Source of the DNA: Armatimonadota bacterium
GTDB lineage: Bacteria; Armatimonadota; HRBIN16
DNA: 64,000 bases
NCBI GenBank assembly: GCA_026003175.1
Contig: BPGT01000004.1
Span: 1-64,000 of the forward strand
Direction of reading: 5' to 3'
Below, in pieces: positions 5,000-9,340 of this stretch (position 1 is the stretch's first letter; each line of letters begins with the position of its first letter). The notes under the pieces are model-generated. The model ran no database searches. It was not told the DNA's origin and saw only the letters and a program-made list of their open reading frames with translations. Position numbers and translations under genes: made by a program.

Positions 5000-5570
5000 T
5001 ATCCCCTTGTGGTTGAAGCAATGAACATGCGCGACTGGGCAAATAAAACTGCCCCTGCCCATAGACCAGATCTTCCTCCGCGTCTACCTGCCACCCCCAC
5101 CTCCACGGCGTCTCGGCTGCTCCCTGCTGATACCGCAACACCCCGAACAGGTCAACCGGGTTGTTGCTGACCACCGATGCCGACATGTTCCTCATCACTT
5201 CCGCGATGCCTGGTTGGTCAACCTCTCCCCCCTTCCCCTCTCCTGCGAGGAGAGGGGAGCCGCGCGTCGGACGCCCCCTTCCTTTGTAGGGAAGGGGGGC
5301 AGGGGAGTAGGTTACCAAACTTTAACCTCTCCCCCTTCCCCTCTCCTGCGAGGAGAGGGGAGCCGCGCGTCGGACGCCCCCTTCCTTTGTAGGGAAGGGG
5401 GGTTGGGGGGTTAGGTTTCTCTGCCCAACGGGTCAAAGTGATGTCGCTCACTGTTTCGACGCACCAAAGAGATACCCTGCAAATACAGGGCACCGGTCGT
5501 CCAGCTGCCACCCTCCAGCGGCTTCTGCTGCTCCACCAGCTCGCCCGCTCCGCAGAAGACAGGCAAGTTT
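5000..5570 (-). pseudogene. RHS-repeat protein remnant interrupted by repeat array
   Basis: On the minus strand, 5560-5421 reads as an RHS-type segment (LVEQQKPLEGGSWTTGALY, then ISLVRRNSERHHFDPLGRE). After the repeat array, 5214-5000 reads VVSNNPVDLFGVLRYQQG and ETPWRWGWQVDAEEDL, typical of the RHS-core region in Armatimonadota. The segments are not in one open frame and have neither a start nor the DPxG core end. This is a decayed fragment with the 104-bp repeats placed inside it. Confidence 0.65.
5222..5420. repeat. Tandem repeat, two copies of about 104 bp
   Basis: Units start at 5222 and 5326. Each contains two hairpins: CCCCTCTCC-tgcg-AGGAGAGGGG, and CCCCCTTCC paired with GGGAAGGGG. 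The same unit forms the five-copy array at 8830-9340, and the same two-hairpin core lies inside the 186-bp MITEs elsewhere in the window. Short open frames across it are translation artefacts. Confidence 0.9.
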
Positions 5571-5602: not shown

Positions 5603-6547
5603 TTAGTGTGTACTGCCCGCACGGTGCAACAGGTACGGAAGGCTTTGTAACAACAACGCTTTCGCTTCGGGTTCTAACTTTTCGTTGTACTCCAGAACCA
5701 GCTGCTGGATAGTCGCGAGAGCGTTCTGCGCTCGTAACCTGTGCCCACTCTGCAACGCCGCCACTGTTCGCTCTACGTACATGGTGAGACGACTCGCCAG
5801 TTGCTTATCTCCAACCCACCCGGCGTCTATTGCAGCGCGCCAGTGTGTCCTGAAACTCTCCGCCGATAACCTCCGGGATGGTGACAATGTATAACTTCGC
5901 AATCCACCATCCAAGCCAAGCGGTAGTCTGTCCGCCAAAACAGAAGGCATCTCTTCCGGAACCCGTATCAATGGAGCATCCGAGCTCACAAAGCAGGTTC
6001 CAACCGCTGGTGGATGCTTGCTAATCAGCTGTAAACATACTTGCTGCCCTGCTGCCAGCGGAGCGTATGGCTCTGAAGCAGGGTCTACGCAAAAACTAAA
6101 GGCTTGCCCCTTGTGAGTCTGATGTACCCCGGTAAATCTCCAGCCTTTCTGCGCCAGTGCCCGCACAGGCTCAGCGTCATCGGTGGTCACGTAAATGGCA
6201 ACAATGTTATGGGGGCTGCGAGGGAGGTTGTGTATGGTGTAGGTATAGCGCCACGTGCTATCTTGGAGCCTTTCTGCAGATGCAATGAGCGTCACCTTGG
6301 CTCTCCACTCAGGCGTATAGGTTGTTTGCAAAAGGCGCCCATCGTATCCCCGCCAGGTAATCCGGTACTCTCCCGTTTGCGCTACGTAGTCTATACGACC
6401 AACCCTATCTACTACCCCTGTGCGGATTGTTGATGCGGGCTGCAATAGACGTTTCAGATCCACGTTGACATCTGCTGTCGGTTGGCTGTTGGCGAAAGAA
6501 ACGATAACTATCGCGCTAAAAACGTACATGCCAGTGATTGCTTTCAT
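5603..6547 (-). CDS. Secreted protein, unknown
   Basis: The 314-aa product begins MKAITGMYVFSAIVIVSFANS, a signal peptide with likely cleavage after FANS. The mature part looks beta-rich in its first two thirds (YRITWRGYDGRLL, WRYTYTIHNLP) and helical at the end (about residues 230-310). No family is recognised. The ATG at 6547 follows GGAGGG by six bases. It overlaps the upstream Ig-like gene by 32 bp, so the two are co-transcribed and may act together at the cell surface. Confidence 0.75.
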   Translation of the reverse strand: MKAITGMYVFSAIVIVSFANSQPTADVNVDLKRLLQPASTIRTGVVDRVGRIDYVAQTGEYRITWRGYDGRLLQTTYTPEWRAKVTLIASAERLQDSTWRYTYTIHNLPRSPHNIVAIYVTTDDAEPVRALAQKGWRFTGVHQTHKGQAFSFCVDPASEPYAPLAAGQQVCLQLISKHPPAVGTCFVSSDAPLIRVPEEMPSVLADRLPLGLDGGLRSYTLSPSRRLSAESFRTHWRAAIDAGWVGDKQLASRLTMYVERTVAALQSGHRLRAQNALATIQQLVLEYNEKLEPEAKALLLQSLPYLLHRAGSTH

Positions 6548-8384
6548 TGAGAACCCTCCCACTATATCGCTGGATGATGTTTCTCAGTGTGGTCTGTAAA
6601 GCAGGCGGTAGGTCATCTGCATTACTGAAATCTACCTCTCTACCACGCCGATGCTCATGGTGGGGTGGCGTCCAGTCCGCCCGGATATCGAACAACCCAC
6701 CCCAAATCAGACTAATGTCGTTGTAGTTCAAAGCAAGGTATCCGCTTTGAGAGCCACACTCTATCCGAAAGTCTCGGGCGATGCTTTGCAGATTAGTGAT
6801 GACATCTGAAGCAGCCCAGTGGTTGCTTTGATGGGTAGCTGTTATCCCTACCAGCGTGTAGCCCTCTCCAGGGGATAAATCTTGAAGGTTCGGAACCCGC
6901 ACTCGAACCCTCCCGGCGGGAGTCTGGGGCTGCGGGTTAAAAGGGAATGAAGCGGACGGAATAACCCTTATTTGTTCCTCTCCAGAGATAGTGGATGCGA
7001 CATAAGTCGTTGACCACCCTCCTACAAGAATACCTTGCCAAGGCGTGCAAGTACCTGCAGGTCGCGAAGAATGATGTTGATGCCCTCCTGAGTACTGCAA
7101 TGGTTGGACGCTCACGTAGATGCTTAGTGGCATCGCTGGCGAATTATCAGCAACTACGAACACCGTACCACGCGTTTCCGAACTTGGAAAACCGGCTCCA
7201 GCTGGTCGCACCTCGGCGGGAGCATATACGTCGATACGGATGGTCGGCAGGCTGAGCGGTCGTAGATTTGTTAGGAACACCTGGTCGTGCACACGGGTGT
7301 AGTGTTTTGCAACGTACCCCATCGCCTTAGCGGTGACTGTCGCATATCCATCGACACCAGCTGAATAAAGCGCAACTGTGCACTCACCGCTGACATTTGT
7401 TAGTTGCTGGGCGGGTTCTACCATCCCTATGCTGGCATGGAATGTGACACGTTCATTTGCTATCGGACTGCCGTATTCGTCCAGCAGAATGACCTTAATC
7501 AGTTCAGGTTGTTCTGCAAACGCCAGCTCGCCACCGGAAAACATCATGCGTAGCCCAGCGGGAGACAGGAGAATAACGGGTAACGTCTCCACCGTACTAC
7601 CAGCCTGTACGGATACATGTGCTACGCCGAATTGACCACGTGGATCGAGATACAGAATCACGTTTCCCTGTTCGTCAGTAAGACAATCTAGAGTAGTAGT
7701 GTACCTCTCCTCTTGCCTCAGAACCGTTTCTTCACGAGCAACTGGGCGGTAGTCCTGTAGACCTTCTGTTTCACCAACTGCTTCCCAGCGAGACACTACC
7801 CGCTTTCCAAGCACAGAGTGCTTTGTCACCAACGCTCCGCGGTCGGTGGTAATATGTACCTTTGCGTTCTTAGATGGAAATCCGTGTTCGTCGTAAAGCC
7901 GTATACTTATCCTTACCCTCTCCTCATTGCTCAGGTAAGCTACCCACACTGGCTGATCAGCTTCACAGCGTATGGATGGGGAAACTTTCTCCCTGACATC
8001 CACTAAGCCCCTCACGAACCATTCATTTCCATCAGGAGATCGCAGAGTTGCCACAATAATTGCCTTTGTCGGATCTTTAGGCGCTATCCAGGTTGCCTCC
8101 GCGCTTCTCCAGAAAGTGAACCCGCGCAGTGTATGACCAGAAGTGCCGGTAGTGACACTCGAAGTAATGCTTCCGTCAGGATTGAGGAAGTATCCTTCAC
8201 TGCACGAGAAGGAGACGGTCAAAAAGCCGGTAGGAGCGTTGGCAAAGATTGCCTGAATATTGACTTCCTGACCTGTGGTGACAACTCGCGGATGTAACAA
8301 CACGCTAGTCTCGGTAAACCCATCTGTTGCCGTTGTCTTAATAGCAGAGCCAACAGGCGATTCAGTCTTAGTCATGTTGACCAC
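6516..8384 (-). CDS. Surface protein with Ig-like repeats and a DD-peptidase-like C-terminus
   Basis: The open frame encodes 622 aa from GTG 8384, but it continues upstream without a stop to 8573, adding a Ser-rich and Pro-rich linker. The centre carries invasin-like Ig domains (KVILLDEYGSPIANERVTF, then GECTVALYSAGVDGYATVT). The C-terminus has HEHRRGREVD and NHWHVRF, which resemble the H-x-x-G-x-x-x-D...HxH zinc-site layout of LD/DD-peptidases. This suggests wall or substrate binding, or hydrolysis outside the cell. It lacks its own signal peptide: that lies in another frame (8533-8673) across a run of ten G. One base less in the run gives a single 6516-8673 gene of about 718 codons. Confidence 0.75.
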   Translation of the reverse strand: MVNMTKTESPVGSAIKTTATDGFTETSVLLHPRVVTTGQEVNIQAIFANAPTGFLTVSFSCSEGYFLNPDGSITSSVTTGTSGHTLRGFTFWRSAEATWIAPKDPTKAIIVATLRSPDGNEWFVRGLVDVREKVSPSIRCEADQPVWVAYLSNEERVRISIRLYDEHGFPSKNAKVHITTDRGALVTKHSVLGKRVVSRWEAVGETEGLQDYRPVAREETVLRQEERYTTTLDCLTDEQGNVILYLDPRGQFGVAHVSVQAGSTVETLPVILLSPAGLRMMFSGGELAFAEQPELIKVILLDEYGSPIANERVTFHASIGMVEPAQQLTNVSGECTVALYSAGVDGYATVTAKAMGYVAKHYTRVHDQVFLTNLRPLSLPTIRIDVYAPAEVRPAGAGFPSSETRGTVFVVADNSPAMPLSIYVSVQPLQYSGGHQHHSSRPAGTCTPWQGILVGGWSTTYVASTISGEEQIRVIPSASFPFNPQPQTPAGRVRVRVPNLQDLSPGEGYTLVGITATHQSNHWAASDVITNLQSIARDFRIECGSQSGYLALNYNDISLIWGGLFDIRADWTPPHHEHRRGREVDFSNADDLPPALQTTLRNIIQRYSGRVLNESNHWHVRF

Positions 8385-8532
8385 TCCGCTGTAGACGGGG
8401 TAGGCGGGTTGCCAGGGCTGTGGCGAGCCCGGAGCAGGTTGCAGGGGTGGTGCACCCGATTGCAGGTAGGAGAGGATGAGGTTCCATAGCCCGTTTGCCC
8501 AGGCGAGCCGTTTGCTGGAAGAGGAGTTGTTG

Positions 8533-8673
8533 TCAGTGGAAAGGGAGGAAACTGTCTCTTTTACCCCCCCCCCTCATGTCGGAGGAGGCGAAGAGCGGAG
8601 CGGCTACCTGCACGGTGAGGCTCAGGATGCACACGGTAGCCAGTGTGCGCAGATACGGAAAGCGTCGTAACAT
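8533..8673 (-). CDS. Signal-peptide leader of the Ig-like surface protein (out of frame)
   Basis: From ATG 8673, downstream of a GGAGGG site, the frame reads a basic start (MLRRFPYLRTL) then ATVCILSLTVQVAAPLFA, a convincing signal peptide. It runs into the G10 run and stops at 8533. The downstream frame open to 8573 continues the expected linker. With nine or twelve G the two frames fuse. I read this as the 5' end of the gene at 6516-8384, split by slippage, mutation or an assembly error. Confidence 0.65.
   Translation of the reverse strand: MLRRFPYLRTLATVCILSLTVQVAAPLFASSDMRGGGKRDSFLPFH
8564..8573 (-). repeat. Poly-G run of ten inside a coding region (possible phase switch)
   Basis: Ten C on the plus strand equals ten G in the coding strand, directly after the signal-peptide region (…DMR then G-run then VKETVSS). 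Lengths of 9 or 12 restore a continuous frame; 10 does not. Confidence 0.9.
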
Positions 8674-8829
8674 TTTGGTAAGCACCCTCCTTTGTAATGT
8701 TGTGAAAAGCCCTCTTGAGATTTTCGCCACACTGCGGGAGCTGCGCTACTGGCTACAGTATAGCACCTCCCTACATGGTTGTCAAGCATTTTGGCGGGGG
8801 CGTGGGGAAAATTTTTTCTAAAGATTCCA

Positions 8830-9340
8830 CCTCTCCCCCTTCCCCTCTCCTGCGAGGAGAGGGGAGCCGCGCGTCGGGCGCCCCCTTCCCTTGTAGGGAA
8901 GGGGAGCAGGGGGTTAGGTTACCAGACTTTAACCTCTCCCCCTTCCCCTCTCCTGCGAGGAGAGGGGAGCCGCGCATCGGGCGCCCCCTTCCCTTGTAGG
9001 GAAGGGGGGCAGGGGGTTAGGTTACCAAACTTTAACCTCTCCCCCTTCCCCTCTCCTGCGAGGAGAGGGGAGCCGCGCGTCGGACGCCCCCTTCCCTTGT
9101 AGGGAAGGGGAGCAGGGGGTTAGGTTACCAGACTTTAACCTCTCCCCCTTCCCCTCTCCTGCGAGGAGAGGGGAGCCGCGCATCGGGCGCCCCCTTCCCT
9201 TGTAGGGAAGGGGGGCAGGGGGTTAGGTTACCAAACTTTAACCTCTCCCCCTTCCCCTCTCCTGCGAGGAGAGGGGAGCCGCGCGTCGGACGCCCCCTTC
9301 CCTTGTAGGGAAGGGGGTCAGGGGGTTAGGTTGCAACACC
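8830..9340. repeat. Tandem array, five copies of a 103-bp unit
   Basis: Units start at 8830, 8933, 9036, 9139 and 9242, an exact 103-bp period. Two variants tend to alternate (CCAGACTT versus CCAAACTT junctions; GGGGAGCAG versus GGGGGGCAG), so the array grew in 206-bp steps. Each unit has the two hairpins described at 5222. It lies at the other side of the DNA inserted between the two membrane-gene pairs. Confidence 0.9.

What the first reader, a model, noticed from the sequence alone, without database searches (positions are those of the whole stretch)
8533..8673. G10 run splits a signal peptide from a surface protein: candidate phase-variation switch
Seen: a signal peptide ORF (8673-8533) and a 686-codon frame (8573-6516) meet at ten consecutive G. 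Nine or twelve G gives one secreted Ig-like protein; ten does not. Homopolymer runs in the 5' part of surface genes are a classic slippage switch in host-associated bacteria, but are not known to me in Armatimonadota-like bacteria. The co-transcribed secreted gene at 5603 could be affected too.
Basis: partly seen in the sequence, partly recalled or inferred. Interest (0 to 1): 0.72.

Follow-up and report, generated by a model that had tools for sequence, protein, structure and literature searches.

The report
Poly-G on/off switch, secreted protein
A run of ten G's separates the export signal from the body of a secreted protein in a hot-spring bacterium, and similar G or C runs of changing length sit at the front of many secreted-protein genes across its genus, so these free-living bacteria probably flip such genes on and off at random, as Neisseria and Campylobacter do.

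Summary
G10 (C10 at 8564-8573 on +) separates a 46-codon signal-peptide ORF from a 686-codon frame; nine or twelve G would join them.

The phase-variation reading is supported by comparison. Promoter, signal peptide, tract and linker form a multicopy cassette heading secreted RHS-repeat genes, or this Ig-like (Big_1) gene, across an Armatimonadota genus that includes HRbin16. Cassette tracts measure 6-13 G; the 98%-identical orthologue has 13.

Linker and bodies are under purifying selection although most alleles read out of frame. Further secreted-gene families show the same anatomy with G or C tracts, and a promoter family has G7-G11 between -35 and -10. One promoter orthologue pair has identical 120-bp flanks but G11 versus G10. 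All five G≥10 tracts of this genome lie at the 5' end or promoter of a secreted-type gene.

Alleles fall in both wrong frames (17 and 15, against 3 in frame, in four families), which argues against one programmed frameshift; G/C runs are reported not to provoke transcriptional slippage.

Not shown: reversible switching within one population. An assembly error at this tract cannot be excluded. The mechanism is known; this phylum, habitat and cargo were not found in the literature searched.

The parts
8780..8785 (-). -35 box TTGACA of the cassette promoter
   Evidence: sequence; conserved in cassette copies
8757..8762 (-). -10 box TATACT, 17-bp spacer
8686..8690 (-). Shine-Dalgarno GGAGG
8533..8673 (-). 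signal-peptide ORF as read in the present phase (46 codons plus stop)
8564..8573 (-). G10 tract, the proposed switch
   Evidence: length 6-13 in relatives
8373..8564 (-). RHS-type linker following the tract, 77% identical to the N-terminus of the RHS protein of G003:C38
6516..8573 (-). 686-codon frame: linker plus Ig-like body, out of frame with the signal peptide at G10
7317..7502 (-). Big_1 (bacterial Ig-like) domain
   Evidence: PF02369, 43.7 bits against cut-off 34.9
5603..6547 (-). second secreted gene (314 aa), overlaps the first by 32 nt; conserved order in G006 and G003
5423..5560 (-). remnant of RHS core (residues 821-866 of the full-length RHS protein)
   Evidence: tblastn 89% identity
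5019..5225 (-). remnant of RHS core (residues 861-929)
   Evidence: tblastn 51-52% identity

Best explanation
The G10 run is a translational phase-variation switch. Slipped-strand mispairing during replication adds or removes G's. When the length is a multiple of three, the signal peptide is joined to linker and body and the protein is exported; otherwise translation stops within about 12 codons after the tract, as in this assembly. The switch lies in a multicopy 5' cassette (promoter, signal peptide, tract, linker) that heads secreted RHS-repeat genes in this genus and here heads an Ig-like gene, probably because the middle of an ancestral RHS gene was replaced (RHS core remnants remain downstream). 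The OFF phase probably also lowers the overlapping second secreted gene. Shown: anatomy, length variation between relatives, selection on out-of-frame bodies, and the same anatomy in many secreted genes. Inferred: the slippage mechanism, reversibility within a population, surface exposure and polarity on the second gene.
For: Tract lengths 10, 13, 10, 8, 10, 7, 8, 6 at eight cassette loci. Linker conserved as protein only in the fused frame, pN/pS 0.19-0.57. Body dN/dS 0.35 against the orthologue and 0.24-0.42 for pairs of out-of-frame genes elsewhere. Same anatomy in TPR, second RHS and two poly-C dockerin families with differing lengths and phases, and in promoters with G7-G11 spacers, including G11 versus G10 between identical 120-bp flanks. 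All five tracts of 10 or more in this genome are at the 5' end or promoter of secreted-type genes. Both wrong frames occur.
Against: No read-level or culture evidence of switching. Most alleles in four families are OFF (32 of 35), more than two thirds, which is unexplained. The automatic position test against 7-G runs gave only a modest contrast (6/17 versus 3/30). All lengths are consensus assembly values.
Confidence: 0.77

Rival explanations
1. Assembly or consensus error at this tract: the DNA really has nine G and the gene is simply on.
For: Homopolymers are the usual place for consensus errors, and the sequencing method of this genome is unknown to me.
Against: The orthologue has 13 G, also out of frame. 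Out-of-frame alleles with tracts of only 6-8, where short-read assemblies are normally sound, occur in several independent genomes. An error here would leave the genus-wide pattern standing.
Confidence: 0.1
2. Recoding: the gene is constitutively expressed from out-of-frame DNA by transcriptional slippage or ribosomal frameshifting at the tract.
For: Out-of-frame bodies are kept by selection and in-frame alleles are rare in four families (3 of 35); the window and its orthologue differ by exactly three G.
Against: Out-of-frame alleles fall in both wrong frames within families (17 and 15), so no single frameshift direction serves. In E. coli and Buchnera, transcription insertions in homopolymer runs were all in A/T runs (PMC5574713). 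In-frame alleles do exist, and promoter tracts cannot be explained by recoding.
Confidence: 0.1
3. Pseudogene: a dead RHS-locus fragment with a chance G run.
For: Out of frame, RHS remnants alongside; the G003 copy is broken near its C-terminus and several cassette copies are remnants.
Against: 682 intact codons, dN/dS 0.35 against the orthologue, conserved neighbour gene in three species, purifying selection between out-of-frame genes.
Confidence: 0.03

Closest known systems
Poly-G/C translational phase variation in Neisseria and Campylobacter (HmbR/HpuAB, PMC3786947; phasome surveys PMC5953494, PMC6321876)
   Same: G/C tracts of about 9 or more inside the 5' part of genes for secreted or surface proteins, length varying between relatives so that the frame is on or off; 17 tracts of 9 or more here against a published mean of 15.4 per meningococcal genome.
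   Different: Free-living hot-spring Armatimonadota, RHS, Ig-like, TPR and dockerin cargo; switching within a population not yet shown; genome larger and of different composition, so the tract counts are not strictly comparable.
Transcriptional phase variation by a homopolymer between -35 and -10 (as in Neisseria porA, from own knowledge; promoter tract of nspA, PMC6389960)
   Same: G7-G11 between -35-like and -10-like hexamers, giving a 14-18 bp spacer that differs between orthologues.
   Different: This concerns a sister family in the same genomes, not the window gene; the promoter assignment is by sequence only.
Secreted RHS/YD-repeat proteins with DUF6531
   Same: Signal peptide, tract, linker and downstream RHS core remnants are those of full-length RHS genes of the genus.
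   Different: The window protein has no RHS repeats; its body is Ig-like.

Membership tests
Homopolymer-mediated translational phase variation | G/C tract of 9 or more within the reading frame | tested here: met
   G10 at 8564-8573
Homopolymer-mediated translational phase variation | unit change of length toggles a full-length product | tested here: met
   lengths divisible by 3 fuse signal peptide and body
Homopolymer-mediated translational phase variation | tract length varies between closely related copies | tested here: met
   6-13 G in cassette loci; 13 in the 98% identical orthologue
Homopolymer-mediated translational phase variation | OFF alleles keep an intact, selected reading frame | tested here: met
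Homopolymer-mediated translational phase variation | reversible switching, mixed lengths in one population | not testable with these tools
   no raw reads or strains available
RHS/YD-repeat protein | RHS repeats in the window protein itself | tested here: not met
   Pfam finds Big_1 but no RHS repeat in the body; only the N-terminal linker and downstream remnants are RHS-type
Big_1 (bacterial Ig-like) domain protein | Big_1 domain above the Pfam gathering score | tested here: met
   43.7 bits against 34.9
Programmed ribosomal frameshifting | one fixed frame relation between the two parts in all members | tested here: not met
   both wrong frames and in-frame alleles occur within families

The most novel reading that the evidence does not exclude
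Free-living thermophilic Armatimonadota (the HRbin16 genus) carry a set of contingency loci about as large as the meningococcal one: G and C tracts that switch several families of secreted RHS, dockerin, TPR and Ig-like proteins by frame and others by promoter spacing, with most copies of some families off at any time and one switch cassette re-used in front of different bodies.
Probability: 0.65. Interest if true: 0.75.

Novelty: new member of a known kind. Interest (0 to 1): 0.64.

Why it matters
Contingency loci of this kind are studied mostly in host-associated bacteria and explained by immune evasion. A genus-wide set in free-living hot-spring bacteria would need another driver, such as phage, predators or contact competition through RHS proteins, and can be tested with existing metagenome reads. 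It also warns annotators that many long secreted genes in this lineage are split by phase and not dead.

Tried and rejected
Structure prediction of the Ig-like body gave a useless model (mean pLDDT 41, three sequences), so no fold search was made. A sequence search of solved structures with the C-terminal 144 aa found nothing significant. A first by-eye count of frames in the poly-C families was wrong and was replaced by scripted counts. The automatic position test (signal-peptide gene around the tract, 9 or more versus exactly 7 G) gave only a modest contrast (6/17 versus 3/30, one of the three being a short-tract member of a switch family), so the argument rests on orthologue comparison. Programmed frameshifting was put aside (mixed direction), transcriptional slippage judged unlikely (G/C runs reported as not slippery), and a chance pseudogene rejected (purifying selection). 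Literature searches for phase variation with Armatimonadetes, hot-spring repeats and thermophiles found nothing relevant; the library holds open-licence papers only.

Full report
OBSERVATION. On the coding (-) strand, ATG 8673 starts a typical signal peptide (MLRRFPYLRTLATVCILSLTVQVAAPLFASSDMRG...). Ten G's follow at 8573-8564. In the present phase the ORF ends after 46 codons at 8533. The long frame, 8573-6516, is open for 686 codons including its stop but has no ATG, GTG or TTG before 8384. Any tract length divisible by three fuses them. No other G/C run in the window exceeds seven.

ORGANISM. The window is part of a 4.1-Mb, 7-contig genome, 97% complete. Its order is represented by ten genomes, all of one genus. 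G001 has a contig of the same number and length as BEHS01000025.1 of bacterium HRbin16; others correspond to RSWS16 and Ch118. So this is an Armatimonadota lineage of the HRBIN16 group, reported from hot springs (PMC9671151, PMC11071339).

THE CASSETTE. The promoter, signal peptide and tract (8800-8530) occur several times in this genome and in five relatives; a sixth, G009, matches only in the promoter part. In intact copies a conserved linker follows (VKETVSSLSTDNN...PWQPAYPVYSGVVN). In G002:C38 and G003:C38 it runs into RHS proteins of about 1070 aa with DUF6531 and 12-13 RHS repeats; G001:C25 and G007:C60 carry shorter RHS stretches. In the window, in G006 and in G003:C18 the body is Ig-like instead (Big_1, E 3.1e-11). 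Downstream come a second secreted gene and remnants of the RHS core (residues 821-929 of the full-length protein). G006 and G003 have the same order. The simplest reading, an inference, is that the middle of an RHS gene was replaced by the Ig-like and second genes, leaving the switch cassette in front.

TRACT LENGTHS. At the eight loci with a long or contig-limited body the G count is 10 (window), 13 (98% identical orthologue in G006), 10, 8, 10, 7, 8 and 6. Only the last is in frame, and that gene is broken near its C-terminus. Deletion remnants with interrupted tracts also exist (G006:C1 GGGGTGGGAG; G006:C3 GTGGGGG).

THE FUSED FRAME IS REAL. The linker has no start codon of its own before GTG 8384. 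Between copies it is conserved as protein only in the frame fused to the signal peptide: pN/pS is 0.19-0.57 there, 0.52-1.44 in the second frame and above 1.2 in the third. Pairs of genes that are both out of frame still show dN/dS of 0.24-0.42 in their bodies. These proteins are therefore made at least some of the time.

A GENUS-WIDE PATTERN. This genome has 17 G/C tracts of nine or more. Eight lie at the signal-peptide end of a gene (two of them cassette remnants) and four between -35 and -10 of a promoter; the five of ten or more are all in these two groups. The published criterion for phase-variable G/C tracts is nine or more, and meningococcal genomes average 15.4 poly-G tracts (PMC5953494). 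Orthologues were examined for length and frame. TPR proteins: G9 in frame at five loci, G6 in frame, G10 twice and G8 out of frame. A second RHS family: 5-18 G at seven loci, none in frame with the upstream start (some bodies are broken). Two dockerin-bearing families with poly-C tracts of 6-11 and 6-10: one in-frame allele among ten loci each. Promoters TTGACRC-G(n)-ACRGNGTAGAAT have n of 7 to 11 and spacers of 14-18, mostly before signal-peptide genes. One G000/G006 orthologue pair has identical 120-bp flanks on both sides but G11 versus G10.

MECHANISM. Best reading: slipped-strand mispairing changes the tract, and frame or promoter spacing switches the gene. In four families (RHS/Ig, second RHS, two dockerin) the counts are 3 in frame, 17 in one wrong frame and 15 in the other. 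A programmed frameshift would need one direction. Transcriptional slippage could serve either, but in E. coli and Buchnera all transcription insertions in homopolymer runs were in A/T runs (PMC5574713). The excess of OFF over the two thirds expected for random frames (P about 7e-4 if loci were independent, which they are not) suggests that OFF is the favoured state in the sampled populations. This is unexplained, and the TPR family shows the opposite (6 ON, 3 OFF).

LIMITS. ON/OFF was called from the longest open frame downstream of the tract. Loci share ancestry, so the counts are descriptive. Tract lengths come from consensus assemblies; this particular ten could be nine. The automatic control for position gave a modest contrast. 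Reversible switching has not been seen. The literature library covers open-licence papers only, so 'not found' is weak evidence of novelty.

VERDICT. The kind of mechanism is well known; its presence on this scale in a free-living thermophilic Armatimonadota genus, on RHS and other secreted proteins, was not found described in the searches made here.

Noticed in passing
L080, L081, L082 (G000:C2:230520, C2:944186, C3:123344, C3:128363) and relatives: A repeated promoter-like element with a G7-G11 spacer between -35 and -10 precedes genes with signal peptides; candidate transcriptional phase variation.
   Followed up: partly
L007 (G000:C2:140048), L006 (G000:C1:1364551), L154 (G003:C55), L129, L146: G9 tracts at the 3' end of sigma-factor-like genes just upstream of secreted genes; in G002:C48 the tract appears to fuse the sigma-like frame to a downstream 334-codon frame.
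   Followed up: no
L132 (G006:C3:903867-903884): An 18-G tract in the signal peptide region of a gene start whose body is truncated; the orthologue in this genome has 9 G and a long RHS body.
   Followed up: partly
window 6519-6700: The C-terminus of the Ig-like protein reads HRRGREVDF...NHWHVRF, reminiscent of LAS-type metallopeptidase motifs; no Pfam or structure match supports it.
   Followed up: partly
window 8829-9332 and about 5230-5415: A 103-bp GC-rich unit repeated 4.9 times directly upstream of the cassette promoter; related units interrupt the RHS core remnant downstream.
   Followed up: no
L028 7767-14224: In G006 a series of RHS-core fragments follows the orthologous locus, resembling an array of orphan RHS tips.
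   Followed up: no
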